This document shows, in pieces, positions 22,551-56,788 of a DNA stretch of 64,000 nucleotides; positions within the stretch are counted from its first letter, which is position 1, and the number at the start of each line of letters is the position of its first letter. The stretch comes from Mesorhizobium sp. Pch-S. Its GTDB lineage: Bacteria > Pseudomonadota > Alphaproteobacteria > Rhizobiales > Rhizobiaceae. The translations under genes were made by a program, and so were the position numbers. A model generated the notes under the pieces. The model saw nothing but the letters and a program-made list of their open reading frames with translations, had not been told where the DNA came from and did not search any database. Location: positions 2,795,501 to 2,859,500 of the forward strand of contig NZ_CP029562.1 of the NCBI RefSeq assembly GCF_004136315.1. Reading direction: 5' to 3'.

Positions 22551-23000
22551 ATGTTCGCAGTCATCAAAACGGGCGGCAAGCAGTATCGTGTTGCCGCCAA
22601 CGATGTGCTCAAGATCGAGAAGCTCGAGGCCAATGTCGGCGACGTCGTCGAAATCGGCCAGGTTCTGGCGCATGGCGAAGGCGAGAATGTCGTGATCGGC
22701 GCTCCGTTCGTCGACGGCGCGGTGGTTACCGCCGAAGTCGTCGAGCAGGGCAAGAACCGCACCGTCATCGCTTTCAAGAAGCGCCGCCGGCAGAATTCCC
22801 GCCGCAAGATCGGCCACCGCCAGCTGCAGACCACCGTGCGCATCTCCGAAATTCTGGTCGCTGGTGCCAAGCCTTCCAAGAAAGCGGCTGCCAAGGCCGA
22901 GGTGAAGGGGGAAACCGCTGCAGAGGCCAAGGCTGAAGCCGCTCCGAAGAAGGAGAAGGCTGCGCCGAAGAAGGCCAAGGCTGAGGACGCCGCTGAGTAA
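22551..23000 (+). CDS. rplU: 50S ribosomal protein L21 with extended Ala/Lys tail
   Basis: Large-subunit ribosomal protein L21, 149 aa. The core (1-103) has [14 protein letters not shown], the [15 protein letters not shown] strand and [23 protein letters not shown]. The usual bacterial length is about 103; residues 104-149 form an extra tail rich in Ala, Lys and Glu. Such tails are known in rhizobial L21 proteins. Start at 22551 is fixed by homology; the frame is open further upstream, but that part overlaps the tRNA. It is followed by rpmA, the standard order. Confidence 0.97.
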
Positions 23001-46764: not shown

Positions 46765-47667
<903 letters not shown>

Positions 47668-47671
47668 CCCC

Positions 47672-49066
47672 ATGGCCGTTACCGTTTCCAACAACACGGG
47701 CGATACAGTCGCCAATCCGATGGCTCGTGCTTTCCGCGAGGCAATCTATGCCGGCCTCGTCGCATTTGGGCTTTTCGTTCTGCTCATTGGCCTGAGGACC
47801 GACCAGAACATCCGCAACGAACTGGTGCTCATCCAGCGCTGGGGGCTGCTTGCTATCGTGGTGGGCATTACCGCGCTCGGCCGGTTCCTCTACGTGGCCT
47901 TCGCCATACCGGCGATGGAGCGCGCCAAGGCGGAGAAAGCGGCTGCGCCCGCCGCTGCCGCCGAGCCAGGGTTCGTTCGCCGCAATTTCAACTCACTCGG
48001 CATTGCCGCTCTGGTGCTCTATCCCATCCTGGTGGTGTCGCTGGTCGGGTTCCAGAGCTCCCTGAAATGGGTCGACAATTTCGGCATCCAGATCCTGATC
48101 TACGTGATGCTGGCATGGGGCCTGAACATCGTCGTCGGCCTCGCCGGCCTGCTCGACCTCGGTTATGTCGCCTTTTATGCGGTTGGCGCCTATGCCTACG
48201 CGCTGCTCGGCACGCATTACGGGCTGTCGTTCTGGATCCTGCTGCCCGCCGCCGGCATCATGGCTGCCTTCTGGGGCATCCTGCTTGGCTTCCCGGTCCT
48301 GCGTCTGCGCGGTGACTATCTTGCCATCGTTACGCTGGCCTTCGGCGAAATCATCCGCCTCGTGCTGATCAATTGGCGCGAGGTCACGAATGGTGCTGCC
48401 GGTATTTCCGGCATCCCCAAGGTTTCGTTCTTCGGCCTGATGTCGTTCAACGTGTCGGACCCGAACTACATCGCCAAGGTGCTGGGCATTGCCCAGTCGG
48501 GCGCCTACTACAAGATCTTCCTGTACTATCTCATCCTGGCCATGGCGCTGGTCACGGCCTTCGTCACCATCCGGCTGCGCCGCATGCCGGTGGGGCGTGC
48601 GTGGGAAGCCTTGCGCGAGGATGAGATCGCCTGCCGCTCGCTCGGCATCAACACCACCACCACCAAGCTCACGGCTTTTGCCACCGGCGCAATGTTCGGC
48701 GGGTTCGCTGGCTCCTTCTTCGCCGCCCGGCAAGGCTTCGTATCGCCGGAATCCTTCGTCTTCATCGAATCGGCTATCATCCTGGCGATCGTGGTGCTGG
48801 GTGGCATGGGTTCGCTCGGCGGCATCGCGGTCGCTGCGGTCGTGATGATCGGCGGCACCGAGATCCTGCGTGAACTGGATTTCCTCAAAGTGGTGTTCGG
48901 GCCGGACTTCACACCTGAACTCTACCGCATGCTCCTGTTCGGCATGGCCATGGTCATCGTCATGTTGTGGAAGCCACGCGGCTTCGTCGGCAGTCGCGAA
49001 CCGACCGCGTTCCTCAAGGAACGAAAAGCGGTTTCAAGTTCCTTCACCAAGGAAGGACACGGCTGA
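47672..49066 (+). CDS. livM: Branched-chain amino acid ABC permease LivM
   Basis: Second inner-membrane permease, 464 aa, longer than minimal LivM (about 320) because of an N-terminal extension of about 130 residues with extra helices (AIYAGLVAFGLFVLLIGL, LLAIVVGITALGRFLYVAFAI). The core reads GLNIVVGLAGLLDLGYVAFYAVGAYAYALL, PVLRLRGDYLAIVTLAFGEIIRLVLINWREVTNGAAGI, and WEALREDEIACRSLGINTTTTKLTAFATGAMFGGFAGSFFA. The extension is common in E. coli-like and rhizobial LivM. Its stop overlaps the livG start by one base. Confidence 0.95.
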   Translation: MAVTVSNNTGDTVANPMARAFREAIYAGLVAFGLFVLLIGLRTDQNIRNELVLIQRWGLLAIVVGITALGRFLYVAFAIPAMERAKAEKAAAPAAAAEPGFVRRNFNSLGIAALVLYPILVVSLVGFQSSLKWVDNFGIQILIYVMLAWGLNIVVGLAGLLDLGYVAFYAVGAYAYALLGTHYGLSFWILLPAAGIMAAFWGILLGFPVLRLRGDYLAIVTLAFGEIIRLVLINWREVTNGAAGISGIPKVSFFGLMSFNVSDPNYIAKVLGIAQSGAYYKIFLYYLILAMALVTAFVTIRLRRMPVGRAWEALREDEIACRSLGINTTTTKLTAFATGAMFGGFAGSFFAARQGFVSPESFVFIESAIILAIVVLGGMGSLGGIAVAAVVMIGGTEILRELDFLKVVFGPDFTPELYRMLLFGMAMVIVMLWKPRGFVGSREPTAFLKERKAVSSSFTKEGHG

Positions 49067-50682
49067 TGGATGCGAGCTCCGCCATGAACAAGACGCTTCT
49101 TCAGGTCGAGCACCTGTCGATGAAATTCGGCGGCCTGGTCGCCATCGGCGATCTGTCCTTCGAGGCCCGGCGCGGCGAGATCACCGCGCTGATCGGTCCG
49201 AACGGCGCCGGCAAGACGACGGTGTTCAATTGCATCACCGGTTTCTACAAGCCGACCGAGGGCATGATACGCTTCACCGGTCACGGTGGTTCGGAATTCC
49301 TGCTCGAACGCATGCCGGACTTCCAGATCACCGCCAAGGCAAAGGTCGCCCGCACCTTCCAGAACATCCGCCTGTTTTCGGGCATGACGGTTCTGGAAAA
49401 CCTGCTGGTCGCCCAGCACAACAAGCTGATGAAGGCGTCGGGCTATACGATCGTCGGCCTGCTCGGCCTCGGCAATTACCGCCGCGTGTCGGGTGAATCG
49501 GTCGAACTGGCCAAGCACTGGCTTGAAAAGGCCGACCTCATGGATCGCGCCGACGATCCCGCCGGCGACCTGCCCTATGGCGCACAGCGCCGCCTCGAGA
49601 TCGCCCGTGCCATGTGCACCGGTCCGGAACTGCTCTGCCTCGACGAACCCGCAGCCGGTCTCAATCCGAAGGAATCGCTGGCGCTCAACGATCTGCTTCT
49701 GGACATCAAGAACAGCACCGGCACGTCGATCCTGCTCATCGAGCACGACATGTCGGTGGTGATGCAGATTTCCGATCACATCGTGGTGCTGGAGTATGGC
49801 CGCAAGATCTCCGATGGCGATCCGGCTTTTGTGCGCTCCGATCCCAAGGTCATCGCCGCCTATCTCGGCGTCGACGACGAAGAGGTCGAGACCGTGCTCA
49901 CCGACGTCGGCGATGAGAACATCATCGAACAGCTCGAGGCGCACCCCGATACCGCGCATGGGCCAGGCACATCCGCTTCGATGATGGCCGGTCCGATCAG
50001 CGAGACGATCGACCATGTCGAAGGCGAGCGGGTGACCGTTTCCAAGGGGGCATCGAAGGCCGCGCTGGTGGAGGCACGGGCCAATGTCGCCTCGGAAGCT
50101 GCTGCGGCGAGTGCCAAGGCATCCAGAGGCAAGCCGGCGAAAAGTGCCGGTTCAGCGAAATCCGCAGGCAAGGTCGGCGGGAAGACCGCTGCCAGGCCAG
50201 AGGCCGCGAAGTCGATGGCTGTCGCAGCCACACCTGCAGCCAAGACCACGAAACCTGCAGCGTCGGCAAAAGCGACTGCAGCAGCACCTGCAGCCAAGTC
50301 AGCAAAAGCGCCGGCGGCCAAGCCGGCTGCTGCGGCGAAACCGGCAGCCGGTATATCCAACCGTCTCTCGGCACCGCGCGGCGGCAAGGCCGACAACCTG
50401 ACCCGCATCAAGGGCGTCGGCTCGGTCAACGAAAAGAAGCTGAACGACCACGGCATATATCATTTCGACCAGATCGCTGCCTGGAAGAAGGCCGACGTCG
50501 TCGCGGCGGAAGCCTATCTCGCCTTTGACGGGCGCATTGCCCGCGAAGACTGGATCGGCCAGGCAAAACTGCTCGCCAAGGGCAGCGAAACGGAGTTCTC
50601 GCGTCGCGTCGATGCGGGCGATGTGCCAACCAGCCATGCGTCGGCAAAGTCCGCAGCGGCCAAGCGCGGAGGACGTAAGTGA
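49066..50682 (+). CDS. livG: LivG ATPase fused to Ala/Lys linker and H3TH-like domain
   Basis: ATPase of the Liv importer, 538 aa instead of the usual 255-295. Residues 8-272 are a normal LivG: Walker [10 protein letters not shown] (44-52), TFQNIRLF, signature LPYGAQRR (169-176), Walker [14 protein letters not shown] and EHD (H227). Residues 330-435 are a low-complexity linker of Ala, Lys, Ser and Pro. Residues 440-518 ([35 protein letters not shown] ... [20 protein letters not shown]) match the helix-hairpin-helix-like, COG3743-type domain that also ends rhizobial NuoE proteins. ATG 49066 overlaps the livM stop; livF overlaps the end. Confidence 0.9.
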
Positions 50683-51410
50683 TGGCCGGTGCACCGCTGC
50701 TCGATATCAAGGGCGTCCACACCTACTACGGCAACATCCGCGCGCTGAACGGCGTCAATGTCAGCGTCAACGAGGGCGAGATCGTCGCTTTGATCGGTGC
50801 CAACGGTGCCGGCAAGTCGACGCTGATGATGACCGTCTTCGGCGCACCGCGGGCGCGGACCGGAACGATCACCTTCGCCGGCACCGACATCACGCAGATG
50901 CCGACGCATGAGATCGCCAGGCTGCGCATCGCGCAGTCGCCGGAAGGCCGACGCATCTTCCCGCGCATGACGGTGATGGAAAACCTGCAGATGGGCGCCA
51001 GCCTCGACAACCTCAAATATTACAGCGAGGACGTCGAGAAGGTCTTCACCCTGTTCCCCCGCCTCAAGGAGCGTATCAGCCAGCGCGGCGGCACCCTGTC
51101 GGGTGGCGAGCAGCAGATGCTGTCGATCGGGCGCGCGTTGATGGCGCGGCCGAAACTGCTTTTGCTGGATGAACCATCGCTCGGTCTTGCGCCGCTGATC
51201 GTCAAGCAGATCTTCGACGCTATTCGCGAGCTCAACCGCACGCAGGGATTGACGGTATTCCTGGTCGAGCAGAACGCCTTCGGCGCGCTGAAGCTCGCCA
51301 CGCGTGGCTATGTCATGGTGAACGGCAATGTCACCATGAGCGGCAGCGGCAAGGACCTGCTCGCCAATCCGGAAGTCCGCGCCGCCTATCTCGAAGGCGG
51401 ACATCACTAA
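50682..51410 (+). CDS. livF: Branched-chain amino acid ABC ATPase LivF
   Basis: Second ATPase of the Liv importer, 242 aa, single domain of standard size. IKGVHTYYGNIRALNGVNVSVNEGEIVALIGANGAGKST gives Walker A, then QSPEGRRIFPRMTVMENL, the signature LSGGEQQMLSIGRALM and Walker B LLLLDEPSLGLAP, and EQN at the H-loop position. ATG at 50682 overlaps the livG stop by one base (TGATG) with AGGA upstream. It has none of the extension found on LivG. Confidence 0.96.
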   Translation: MAGAPLLDIKGVHTYYGNIRALNGVNVSVNEGEIVALIGANGAGKSTLMMTVFGAPRARTGTITFAGTDITQMPTHEIARLRIAQSPEGRRIFPRMTVMENLQMGASLDNLKYYSEDVEKVFTLFPRLKERISQRGGTLSGGEQQMLSIGRALMARPKLLLLDEPSLGLAPLIVKQIFDAIRELNRTQGLTVFLVEQNAFGALKLATRGYVMVNGNVTMSGSGKDLLANPEVRAAYLEGGHH

Positions 51411-51424
51411 GGGGGGTCTTCATC

Positions 51425-51772
51425 ATGCAAGGCATCATCTATGAAGAAGCCTCCGTCTGGCAGTTCTTCTTCGTCACCTGCCTGTTGGGCGGATGGGCAG
51501 CCTGGATGACAGGCAGGGCCTGTGCGCAGACATGGCGGACGCGGCCGATGCTGTTCGTCTACATTCTGGGCCTGGGGCTTGGCGTGCGGTTCATCCATCA
51601 CGCTCTTTTCGAGGGCACGATGTTCACGCTGCAGTTCTATGTCGTCGACACGATCGTGCTGATGGTGCTGGCTTTTCTCGGCTACCAGTATACCCGCACC
51701 AACCAAATGGTGTCGCAGTATAGCTGGCTATACGAAAAGGTTTCGCCGCTCAGCTGGAAGGCGAAAGGCTGA
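51425..51772 (+). CDS. DUF6867-type membrane protein of the liv cluster
   Basis: Small membrane protein of 115 aa with three predicted helices (WQFFFVTCLLGGWAAWMTG; MLFVYILGLGLGVRFIHHALF; QFYVVDTIVLMVLAFLGYQY). It starts 14 bp after livF, and a gene of this kind between livF and the binding protein is usual in rhizobial liv clusters. The role is unknown; it may be an accessory subunit of the importer. Confidence 0.82.
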   Translation: MQGIIYEEASVWQFFFVTCLLGGWAAWMTGRACAQTWRTRPMLFVYILGLGLGVRFIHHALFEGTMFTLQFYVVDTIVLMVLAFLGYQYTRTNQMVSQYSWLYEKVSPLSWKAKG

Positions 51773-53330: not shown

Positions 53331-56300
53331 TTGGCAATCACGAAGATTCTTGTCGCCAACCGTTCCGAGATCGCCATCCGCGTGTTTCGCGCGGCGAACG
53401 AGCTGGGGCTCAAAACGGTGGCGATCTGGGCGGAAGAAGACAAATACTCGCTGCATCGCTTCAAGGCCGATGAAAGCTACCAGGTCGGTCGCGGCCCCTG
53501 GCTCGCCAAGGACATGGGTCCGATCGAAAGTTACCTTTCGATCGATGAGGTGATCCGGGTCGCCAAGCTCTCCGGGGCCGATGCCATCCACCCCGGCTAC
53601 GGCCTTTTGTCCGAAAGTCCGGAATTCGCCGAAGCCTGCGTGGAAAACGGCATCACCTTCATCGGCCCGAAGCCGGAAACGATGCGTCGTCTCGGCAACA
53701 AGGTGGCGGCGCGCAACCTCGCCATCGAGGTCGGCGTGCCCGTTGTACCGGCTACCGATCCGCTGCCGGAGGATGCCGAGGAAATCAAGAAGCAGGCCAA
53801 GGCGATCGGCTATCCGGTGATGCTGAAAGCCTCCTGGGGAGGCGGCGGGCGCGGCATGCGCGCAATCCGCAGCGAAGCCGACCTCATCCGTGAGGTGACG
53901 GAGGGCAAGCGCGAAGCCAAGGCAGCTTTCGGCAAGGATGAAGTCTATCTCGAAAAGCTGATCGAGCGGGCTCGCCATGTCGAGGTGCAGATCCTCGGCG
54001 ACACGCATCGCAACGCTGTCCATCTGTTCGAGCGCGACTGCTCGATCCAACGGCGCAACCAGAAGGTCGTGGAGCGCGCGCCGGCACCCTATCTCAGCAA
54101 TGAGCTGCGGCAGGAGCTTTGCGGTTATGCGCTGAAGATCGCCAACGAGACCAGCTACATCGGTGCCGGCACGGTCGAATTCCTGCAGGATGCCGATAGC
54201 GGCAAGTTCTACTTCATCGAGGTCAATCCGCGTATCCAGGTGGAGCATACCGTCACCGAACAGGTGACCGGCATCGATATCGTCAAGGCGCAGATCCACA
54301 TCCTCGACGGCTTCGCCATCGGCACGCCGGAATCGGGCGTGCCGGCGCAGAAGGATATCCGGCTGAACGGCCATGCCCTGCAGTGCCGCATCACGACCGA
54401 GGACCCAGAGCAGAACTTCATTCCCGACTATGGCCGCATCACCGCCTATCGCGGCGCCACCGGCTTCGGCATCCGGCTCGACGGCGGCACGGCCTATTCC
54501 GGCGCGGTCATCACCCGCTACTACGATCCGCTGTCGAGAAGGTCACGGCCTGGGCGCCGACCTCGGATGAGGCGATCTCGCGCATGAACCGCGCCTTGCG
54601 CGAGTTCCGCATTCGCGGTGTGGCGACCAATCTGACGTTTCTCGAAGCGATCATCAATCACCCGAGCTTCGCCGACAACTCCTACACGACGAAGTTCATC
54701 GATTCGACGCCGGAACTGTTCGCGCAGGTCAAGCGCCAGGACCGCGCCACCAAGCTGCTCAACTACCTGGCCGACGTGACCGTCAACGGCCATCCCGAGA
54801 CGCGTGGCCGACCGAAGCCCAACCCGGATGCGGCTGCGCCGGTGATCCCGTGGTTCACCGCTCCGATCCCCGACGGCAGCAAGCAGAAGCTCGACCAGCT
54901 TGGCCCCGAAGGCTTCGCCAGATGGATGCGGGCGCAAAGCCAGGTTCTGGTCACCGATACGACCATGCGCGACGGCCATCAGTCATTGCTGGCGACACGC
55001 ATGCGCACGCACGACATTGCCCGCATCGCGGGAACCTATGCGCGTGCCCTGCCGCAGCTCCTGTCGCTCGAATGCTGGGGCGGCGCCACCTTCGACGTGG
55101 CCATGCGCTTCCTGACCGAGGATCCGTGGGAGCGCTTGTCGCTGGTGCGCGAGAGGGCGCCGAACATCCTGCTGCAGATGCTGCTGCGCGGTGCCAACGG
55201 CGTCGGCTACACCAACTACCCCGACAATGTGGTGCAGCATTTCGTCAAGCAGGCCGCGGAAGGTGGCATTGACCTGTTCCGTGTCTTCGACTGCCTGAAC
55301 TGGGTCGAGAACATGCGCGTCGCCATGGACGCGGTCGGTGCCGAGGGCAAGCTGATCGAAGCGGCGATGTGCTATACCGGCGACATCCTCGATCCGAACA
55401 GGGCCAAATACAGCCTGAACTACTATGTCGGCCTGGCCAAGGACCTGGAAGCGGCGGGCGCTCATATCATTGCCGTCAAGGACATGGCCGGCCTGCTGAA
55501 GCCGGCGGCCGCCCGTGTGTTGTTCAAGGCGCTGCGCGAAGCGACCGATCTGCCGATCCATTTCCATACGCACGACACCTCCGGCCTGTCGGCCGCAACC
55601 GTGCTGGCGGCAGTGGAGAGCGGCGTCGACGCCATCGACGCCGCCATGGACGCCTTCTCCGGCAACACCTCGCAGCCTTGCCTGGGTTCCGTCGTCGAGG
55701 CACTGAAGGGTACCGACCGCGACCCAGGTCTCGACCCGAAGTGGATTCGCAAGATCTCGTTCTATTGGGAAGCGGTGCGCAACCAGTATGCCGCCTTCGA
55801 GAGCGACCTCAAGGGACCGGCCTCGGAGGTCTATCTGCACGAGATGCCCGGCGGGCAATTCACCAACCTCAAGGAACAGGCGCGCTCGCTTGGGCTGGAA
55901 ACGCGCTGGCACGAGGTGGCGCAGGCCTATCATGACGTCAACCTGATGTTCGGCGATATCGTCAAGGTGACACCGTCTTCGAAGGTCGTCGGCGACATGG
56001 CGCTGATGATGGTCAGCCAGGACCTCACGGTGGCCGATGTCGAGAACCCGGCCAAGGATATCGCTTTCCCGGATTCCGTCGTTTCGATGCTGCGCGGCGA
56101 TCTCGGCCAGTCGCCTGGGGGCTGGCCCGAGGCCCTGCAGAAGAAGGCGCTGAAAGGCGACAAGCCGATCACCGTGCGCCCTGGCTCACTGCTCAAGCCG
56201 GCCGACCTGAAGAAGAGCCGCAAGGAGATCGAGGAAAAGCTCGGTCGCAAGCTGCCCGAGAACGAGTTCGCTTCCTGGCTGATGTATCCGAAGGTGTTCT

Positions 56301-56788
56301 CCGATTTCGCTGCCGCCCAGGAAACCTATGGTCCGGTCAGCGTGTTGCCGACGCCAACCTACTTCTACGGCATGAAGCCGGAGGACGAGGTTTTCGTCGA
56401 CATCGAGAAGGGCAAGACGCTGGTCATCCGCTGCCTCGCGGTCGGCGACACCGACGAAAAAGGCATGGTCACCGTCTTCTTCGAGCTCAACGGGCAGCCG
56501 CGCCGCGTCAAGGTGCCGGACCGGGCGCATGGCGCTTCGAACGGCAAGGCGAGGCCGAAGGCCGAAGCCGGCAACGATTCGCATCTCGGCGCGCCGATGC
56601 CCGGCGTCGTATCGGGCGTGTCGATTTCTGCCGGCCAGAGCGTCAAGGCGGGCGACGTGCTGCTCTCCATCGAAGCGATGAAAATGGAAACGGCACTGCA
56701 TGCAGAGCGTGATGGCGTCGTTGCCGAGGTGCTGGTGAAAGCAGGCGACCAGATCGACGCCAAGGATCTTCTGGTGGTGTTCGGCTGA
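53331..56788 (+). pseudogene. pyc: Pyruvate carboxylase, one-base frameshift
   Basis: Biotin enzyme that carboxylates pyruvate to oxaloacetate. The first frame (TTG at 53331, behind GGAG) covers the biotin-carboxylase domain (ITKILVANRSEIAIRVFRAANELGLKTVAIWAEEDKY; KASWGGGGRGMR; FIEVNPRIQVEHTVTEQVTG). It goes wrong after YYDPL at 54533 and stops at 54587. The second frame resumes at VEKVTAWAPTSDEAISRMNRALREFRIRGVATNLTFLE and holds the carboxyltransferase domain (TTMRDGHQSLLATRMRT) and biotinyl domain (EAMKMETALHAE, end 56788). CTGTCGAG stands where CTGCTCGAG is expected. With one base restored the protein would be 1152 aa, the normal length. Confidence 0.9.

What the first reader, a model, noticed from the sequence alone, without database searches (positions are those of the whole stretch)
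49066..50682. LivG ATPase fused to a COG3743-like helix-hairpin-helix domain
Residues 1-272 are an ordinary LivG. They are followed by about 105 residues of Ala/Lys/Pro-rich linker and then a compact domain (440-518) with the motif [29 protein letters not shown] and a second half [19 protein letters not shown] know this domain from the C-terminus of rhizobial NuoE and from stand-alone H3TH-like proteins. On an amino-acid transporter ATPase it is unexpected. It might bind nucleic acid, tether the importer to another complex, or regulate it. The linker resembles the Ala/Lys tail of L21 at 22860-23000.
Basis: partly seen in the sequence, partly recalled or inferred. Interest (0 to 1): 0.75.

Follow-up and report, generated by a model that had tools for sequence, protein, structure and literature searches.

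The report
Shared tail domain on amino-acid importer
The ATP-burning subunit of an amino-acid importer carries, on a long floppy tail, a small folded domain that related bacteria also attach to ribosomal proteins, respiratory complex I and other machines, so it looks like a general-purpose attachment tag whose partner is still unknown.

Summary
It is no artefact: 21 of 37 same-genus genomes carry it on LivG, and it evolves nearly as slowly as the ATPase (median dN/dS 0.16 versus 0.11). Its presence is patchy, with apparent repeated loss; some LivG carry two or three copies. The larger finding is promiscuity: among 24 genomes the domain sits on NuoE (17), membrane-anchored proteins (17), ribosomal L21 (16), S2 (14), L19 (8), PHB depolymerase (5), RND permeases (2) and LivG or Dpp-type ATPases (1 each); elsewhere also on S1, an Fe-S oxidoreductase and photosynthetic protein-O. 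It lacks a nuclease domain and is on average neutral to acidic, so nucleic-acid binding is less likely. Most likely it is a protein-docking tag on a leash; partner and function are undetermined. NCBIfam already models NuoE, L21, S2 and PhaH with this end; my paper searches found no account of it on LivG.

The parts
49066..49881 (+). LivG-type ABC ATPase core, residues 1-272
   Evidence: Pfam ABC_tran 29-196 (1.6e-29) and BCA_ABC_TP_C 246-271; NF008449 LivG E 1.7e-96 but 322 bits, below its cut-off of 362
49882..50061 (+). conserved segment between ATPase and linker, residues 273-332, seen in LivG with and without the HhH domain
   Evidence: tails of LivG orthologs; median dN/dS 0.147 for the 62 residues after the core
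50062..50382 (+). Ala/Lys/Pro-rich linker, residues 333-439; predicted disordered apart from one low-confidence helix
   Evidence: composition; pLDDT under 50 at 284-337 and 339-427 in the full-length model
50383..50613 (+). C-terminal HhH domain (NuoE-tail / COG3743 type), residues 440-516
   Evidence: NF009040 match; domain model pLDDT 96.3, pTM 0.87; 73-row alignment A1
50614..50682 (+). basic end (...AAAKRGGRK) and stop codon; 13 of 18 extended LivG without the HhH domain also end in GGRK
46765..47667 (+). livH-like permease upstream (named by eye, not scanned)
   Evidence: ORF list
47672..49066 (+). livM-like permease, overlapping the livG start by one base (named by eye, not scanned)
   Evidence: ORF list and sequence
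50679..51410 (+). livF-like ATPase downstream (named by eye, not scanned)
   Evidence: ORF list
22551..23000 (+). ribosomal protein L21 with an Ala/Lys tail but without the HhH domain
   Evidence: NF008915 matched to position 144 of 216 only; the own genome has 5 strong places with the domain (E 8e-12 or better) and none is L21

Best explanation
The LivG subunit carries a folded HhH domain at the end of a flexible leash of about 100 residues. Shown: the domain is real, conserved, predicted to fold, and shared with many other large machines in Alphaproteobacteria. Inferred: it is a protein-docking tag. It leaves the ATPase cycle alone and uses the leash to hold the importer near a partner that also recognises the same tag on complex I (NuoE), ribosomal proteins, Dpp-type ATPases and membrane-anchored proteins. 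The conserved D..LxxIxGxG and GRxxRExWxxQA residues would form the docking surface. Unknown: the partner, and whether the contact regulates transport.
For: Same domain on unrelated proteins: NuoE 17, membrane-anchored proteins 17, L21 16, S2 14, L19 8, PhaZ 5, RND 2 of 24 genomes (examples identified), plus S1 and an Fe-S oxidoreductase and protein-O of a photosynthetic complex. Polar residues stay almost fixed whatever the carrier (D14 99%, Q40 96%, R61 99%, R64 96%, D/E65, W67 and Q70 100% of the 73 rows), as one common ligand would demand. Linker charge is not kept (mean -8.7 for S2, +8.9 for LivG, +12.0 for L21), so the domain is the constrained element. Strong purifying selection on the domain, looser on the linker. 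Class means of domain charge 0.5 or lower. Full-length model: two folded ends, disordered middle. The nearest remote sequence relatives in the PDB are NusA C-terminal repeats (E 0.002), known from memory as protein-binding modules.
Confidence: 0.4

Rival explanations
1. Self-association: the domains bind each other, so that importers, complex I, ribosomes and the membrane-anchored proteins gather into clusters.
For: Membrane-anchored carriers with 1 to 3 copies are in 17 of 24 genomes, and database proteins with up to 5 copies have N-termini that look membrane-anchored by eye; LivG with 2 or 3 copies exist (25 and 1 of 80 LivG among the returned proteins); SAM domains, some of which self-associate (recalled), are among the weak fold matches.
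Against: Seven of the 24 genomes have no protein classed as membrane-anchored, although three of these (G045, G046, G059) have an unclassified carrier; 10 of 19 class-sample genomes have a single copy, four of them on what reads as L21 (completeness 93-99%).
Confidence: 0.22
2. Nucleic-acid tether: the HhH domain, or the Lys-rich leash of LivG, holds the importer to DNA or RNA.
For: The first half is a recognisable HhH, close to RadA and NusA repeats; the LivG linker is basic, +16 over 108 residues; several carriers are ribosomal proteins. PMC8686332 (one passage seen) reports a COG3743 hit on a Halomonas PHA synthase and takes it, with histone-like hits on relatives, to indicate DNA binding.
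Against: Class means of the domain's net charge run from 0.5 (LivG) to -5.7 (L19); linkers are on average acidic on S2, NuoE and membrane-anchored carriers.
Confidence: 0.15
3. Local role only: the folded end caps the disordered tail against proteases, or folds back on LivG to regulate its ATPase.
For: In most carriers the last copy of the domain is at or near the C-terminus; LivG without the domain keeps both flanks.
Against: Two carriers have the domain far from the end (L262 and L265, open frames of 657 and 671), and multi-copy proteins have inner copies. A cap needs no invariant polar residues across carriers; regulation of LivG does not explain the domain on ribosomal proteins and NuoE; the full-length model gives no firm placement (pTM 0.47).
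Confidence: 0.15
4. Hitchhiker: a domain that spreads by recombination between Ala/Lys/Pro-coding repeats and has little function on LivG.
For: Presence on LivG needs 16 changes on the LivG tree, at least 3 by well-supported branches; copies changed carriers, e.g. Dpp copies fall among NuoE copies (95/85).
Against: Median dN/dS 0.159 over 38 LivG; the 16 LivG copies tested form one clade (100/99).
Confidence: 0.08

Closest known systems
NuoE C-terminal domain (NCBIfam NF009040 / PRK12373)
   Same: Aligns to LivG 284-517, linker and domain, at E 2e-31; own-genome NuoE domain is 49% identical to LivG's
   Different: Carrier is a complex I subunit; its linker is on average acidic over 19 NuoE frames of 17 genes
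Protein-O of the Dinoroseobacter shibae RC-LH1 complex (PDB 8YY9 chain O; PMC12079452)
   Same: Residues 157-238 match the LivG domain at E 4e-23; flexible loop before it; authors note likeness to ends of NuoE, 'ATP synthase subunit E' and an endonuclease and call the function obscure
   Different: Membrane-anchored photosynthetic subunit; only residues 8-59 could be traced in the map, so the domain is unseen
Domain-bearing ribosomal proteins L21 (NF008915, NF008916) and S2 (NF008966)
   Same: Same C-terminal domain after a linker
   Different: The own genome has it on neither; S2 linkers are on average acidic
Phasin PhaH model (NF045508)
   Same: Its C-terminal part matches the domain of 15 of 16 domain-bearing proteins scanned (the list of the 16th was capped)
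   Different: PHB-granule protein; no PhaH was examined directly
COG3743 hit on a Halomonas PHA synthase PhaC2 (PMC8686332, one passage)
   Same: Same domain name on a protein of another pathway
   Different: Gammaproteobacterial; its sequence was not seen, so identity with this domain is untested; the authors suggest DNA binding
NusA acidic repeat 2
   Same: First HhH half similar, E 0.002 with the A1 profile; acidic in relatives, mean -6.6 over 28
   Different: Second half (GRxxRExWxxQA) has no counterpart in the alignment
RadA/Rad51 N-terminal HhH domain

Membership tests
LivG (branched-chain amino-acid ABC ATPase) | ABC ATPase plus BCA_ABC_TP_C end | tested here: met
   PF00005 1.6e-29, PF12399 9.4e-11
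LivG (branched-chain amino-acid ABC ATPase) | score over the curated LivG cut-off (NF008449, 362 bits) | tested here: not met
   322.4 bits, best of the 25 NCBIfam models shown but under the cut-off; called LivG-type by rank and by neighbours read as livH, livM, livF by eye; the substrate is inferred
NuoE-tail / COG3743-type appended HhH domain | sequence of the domain, both halves | tested here: met
   NF009040 E 2e-31; invariant L16, G21, L30, W67, Q70 in 73 rows
NuoE-tail / COG3743-type appended HhH domain | C-terminal position after a low-complexity linker | tested here: met
NuoE-tail / COG3743-type appended HhH domain | match to the COG3743 profile itself | not tested
   COG library not on hand; some database relatives bear JGI's name 'predicted flap endonuclease-1-like 5' DNA nuclease'; [quoted passage not shown]
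Flap endonuclease | a nuclease (PIN/XPG) catalytic domain | tested here: not met
   none among the 12 Pfam families listed for the protein at E up to 1
Pfam HHH_5 (PF14520) | match over the gathering score | tested here: not met
   not listed for this protein at E up to 1; relatives such as P0003 and P0009 carry PF14520 in the precomputed column
DNA-binding HhH proteins (RadA N-domain type) | same fold | tested here: inconclusive
DNA-binding HhH proteins (RadA N-domain type) | clearly cationic domain | tested here: not met
   net charge -1 to 2 for four LivG rows, lower class means for the other carriers; total charge only, no surface map
NusA acidic repeats | similarity over the whole domain | tested here: inconclusive
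   40 aligned columns, probability 52%

The most novel reading that the evidence does not exclude
Alphaproteobacteria use one small HhH domain as a reusable address tag: appended by flexible leashes to ribosomal proteins (S1, S2, L19, L21), complex I, a photosynthetic core complex, amino-acid and peptide importers, RND pumps and PHB enzymes, it gathers translation, energy conversion and import around a common, probably membrane-near, receptor. LivG is one client that gained the tag once in the Mesorhizobium-Phyllobacterium lineage and has been losing and multiplying it since.
Probability: 0.25. Interest if true: 0.87.

Novelty: new variant of a known kind. Interest (0 to 1): 0.62.

Why it matters
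A single domain that is added to and removed from ribosomal proteins, respiratory and photosynthetic complexes, importers and storage enzymes within one bacterial class suggests a docking system for which I found no experimental test. Natural with/without pairs of LivG inside one genus give a ready experiment, and finding the domain's partner would explain many C-terminal extensions at once, including the untraced end of protein-O. It also warns against reading the automatic name 'flap endonuclease-1-like nuclease' literally.

Tried and rejected
Artefact or read-through: rejected, because frames with the domain on LivG and no stop inside occur in 21 of 37 genus genomes. Nuclease: no catalytic domain. 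Kinship of the LivG copy with the genus's own membrane-anchored carrier (L002): suggested by the quick tree (87), not kept by the careful tree, in which LivG's sister group is a set of membrane-anchored, unassigned and NuoE copies of other families (93/91). NusA origin: only the first half aligns. A membrane-anchored receptor in every genome: no such protein was classed in 7 of 24. No PDB chain beyond 8yy9_O and 9wqv_a matched the whole domain by sequence among the best 60 of 100 shown; absence of other folds from the VIA-align list is no evidence.

Paper searches, all ten: COG3743 (one paper, PMC8686332, one passage seen), RC-LH1 structures, NuoE with helix-hairpin-helix (24), complex I supernumerary subunits (28), L21/S2/C-terminal extension (42), flap endonuclease-1-like/H3TH (43), sunset domain (45), PhaH (46), 'unknown domain fusion' and like phrases (85). 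L19, PhaZ, RND, S1 and Dpp were not searched by name, so nothing is claimed about print for those carriers. Subscription journals and preprints are mostly not held. Of PMC12079452 I read section 8 and passages, of PMC12654162 passages, of PMC8686332 one passage; all others only as listings.

Rows dropped: two weak two-HhH proteins (L268, L269; E 3e-6 and 4e-6) stand in the 'other' column and are not counted as carriers here; LivG cores shorter than 255 residues or identical were dropped before the tree (105 kept); 38 non-identical of 62 LivG rows with the domain were used for dN/dS, and pairs outside the usable range were dropped; the careful domain tree used rows at E under 1e-22 (under 1e-15 for the added genus rows), so weaker copies such as the RND ones are not in it, and its bootstrap had not settled. 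The carrier classes were assigned by hand; the 60 residues before the domain can reach into the ribosomal protein itself where the linker is short (L19 above all).

Full report
WHAT IS THERE. The frame 49066-50682 on the + strand is open and gives 538 residues. Pfam finds ABC_tran at 29-196 and BCA_ABC_TP_C at 246-271. The best NCBIfam model is LivG (NF008449, E 1.7e-96), though its 322 bits lie under the cut-off of 362. The gene lies among frames that I read by eye as livH, livM and livF, and its start overlaps the end of the livM-like frame by one base. After the ATPase come a conserved segment (273-332), an Ala/Lys/Pro tract (45 Ala and 15 Lys in the 108 residues 329-436, net +16) and a compact domain at 440-516.

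IS IT REAL AND CONSTRAINED. All 37 genus genomes searched, own included, have a LivG ortholog. In 21 of them LivG ends in this domain. Of the other 16, ten were read and lack it; all ten keep the conserved segment and eight end in GGRK. Six were not read and show no LivG-type domain match; in one of these (G013) LivG itself is a fragment. The 80 best of 583 named relatives in genome contigs were sorted: the domain is on LivG in 21 (Mesorhizobium, Neomesorhizobium, Allomesorhizobium, Aminobacter, Phyllobacterium and two unclassified), 8 are extended without it, and 51 are short, with 18-31 residues after the ATPase in Rhizobium, Agrobacterium, Ensifer and Shinella. On a tree of 105 LivG cores (38 with the domain, 18 extended without it, 49 short) presence needs 16 changes, at least 3 by well-supported branches. 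The branches are short, so the exact number is unsure, and loss, gain and exchange are not told apart. Over 38 LivG the median dN/dS is 0.113 for the ATPase, 0.147 for the segment behind it, 0.159 for the domain and 0.36 for the linker, whose alignment is unreliable. In some database proteins LivG carries two or three copies (25 and 1 of the 80 LivG among 165 returned proteins).

THE WIDER PATTERN. The own genome has five strong places with the domain (E 8e-12 or better; a sixth at 0.66 is not counted): LivG; a membrane-anchored protein with long Ala/Lys/Pro repeats (L002); NuoE (L003); a protein between frames that read as NuoF and NuoG (L004); and a copy just behind a Dpp/Opp-type ATPase but out of frame with it (L005). 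Twenty-four genomes, the own one and 23 from other families of the order, were then sorted by what precedes the domain (a 25th, of 1.4 Mb, has none). Carriers: NuoE in 17, membrane-anchored proteins (by hydropathy) in 17, L21 in 16, S2 in 14, L19 in 8, PHB depolymerase PhaZ in 5, RND permease in 2, LivG in 1, in-frame Dpp-type ATPase in 1, of 24; a few carriers stayed unassigned. Pfam or NCBIfam identified examples of each named class, and DUF2934 as one more. In the genus, four other genomes have the domain in frame on a Dpp-type double ATPase (L114-L117, of which L114 was scanned). A second database search, 47 proteins, added S1 (four proteins, domain at the very end), an Fe-S oxidoreductase (two) and a Nitratireductor dipeptide ATPase. 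A class-wide sample found the domain in 19 of 190 genomes, ten of them with one copy. A phylum-wide sample found it in 71 of 299, 67 of them in the window's own class and four outside it at E 2.6e-8 or weaker. A domain tree puts the 16 LivG copies in one clade (100/99), next to membrane-anchored, unassigned and NuoE copies (93/91), and the 8 L19 copies in one clade (100/91); the Dpp copies fall among NuoE copies (95/85); L21, S2, NuoE and PhaZ copies are scattered, so the domain changed carriers repeatedly (80 columns only, bootstrap not settled).

HOW IT MOST LIKELY WORKS. What stays constant across carriers is the domain's polar signature; what varies is the carrier, the linker length and the linker charge (mean over the 60 residues before the domain: S2 -8.7, membrane-anchored and unassigned -5.0, NuoE -3.3, PhaZ +5.4, LivG +8.9, L19 +10.1, L21 +12.0). 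The domain is neutral to acidic on average (class means 0.5 LivG, -0.7 NuoE, -1.4 L21, -3.9 S2, -5.7 L19; single rows -7 to +4). This favours a protein-docking tag over a nucleic-acid binder, and a shared ligand over carrier-specific regulation. That step is inference; the signature was not placed on the surface. Self-association is the main rival; it is weakened, not excluded, by genomes with a single copy, four of them on what reads as L21 (completeness 93-99%).

WHAT IS KNOWN. NCBIfam has carrier-level models for NuoE, L21, S2 and PhaH that include the domain. PMC12079452 (section 8 read) reports that the C-terminal domain of protein-O resembles ends of NuoE, 'ATP synthase subunit E' and an endonuclease, and that its function is obscure; a word search of its text found no 'ribosomal', 'LivG' or 'ABC transporter'. 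PMC8686332 (one passage) mentions a COG3743 hit on a Halomonas PHA synthase and takes it as a hint of DNA binding; whether that is the same domain was not tested. Two database proteins bear JGI's compound name, ATPase component / predicted flap endonuclease (P0014, P0033), so the LivG fusion is visible in automatic annotation. My paper searches (listed under Tried and rejected) found no account of the domain as a promiscuous module or on LivG.

VERDICT.

Noticed in passing
window 53331-54587 and 54383-56788 (+): Pyruvate carboxylase is split between two frames: Pfam Biotin_carb_C is matched at positions 1-50 in the first and 49-107 in the second. A frameshift or an assembly error; not mended.
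   Followed up: partly
L005 (own genome, C1 near 4684535): A Dpp/Opp-type ATPase with an Ala/Lys/Pro tail ends just before a well-conserved copy of the HhH domain that lies in another frame; four other genomes of the genus have the two in one frame (L114-L117). With the split pyruvate carboxylase this hints at indel errors in the assembly.
   Followed up: partly
L124 (own genome, C1:833251-834057): A second LivG, 88% identical over the core, that stops 26 residues after the ATPase and has no linker or domain.
   Followed up: partly
L004:976-1701 (+) and L108:398-1150 (-): A domain-bearing protein in the nuo region of two genomes (for L004, for L108) whose linker and domain match the PhaH model; the gene of protein-O of D. 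shibae lies between nuoE and nuoF.
   Followed up: partly
P0160, P0161, P0162, P0164: Proteins with Pfam S1 domains (one named small subunit ribosomal protein S1 by JGI) that have the HhH domain as their last about 70 residues.
   Followed up: partly
L256, L263, L266: RND-type permeases, frames of 1402-1438 residues, with one or two HhH domains at the C-terminal end.
   Followed up: partly
L262 and L265: Unassigned carriers in which the domain is not near the end of the frame (open frames 657 and 671); partner not identified.
   Followed up: no
window 51425-51772 (+): A 115-residue, hydrophobic frame between the livF-like frame and the binding-protein-like frame; not identified.
   Followed up: no
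NCBIfam NF051451: A 'sunset domain variant' of ribosomal protein S2 exists as a model, apparently another domain added to S2 elsewhere; the one paper found with the phrase is unrelated.
   Followed up: no
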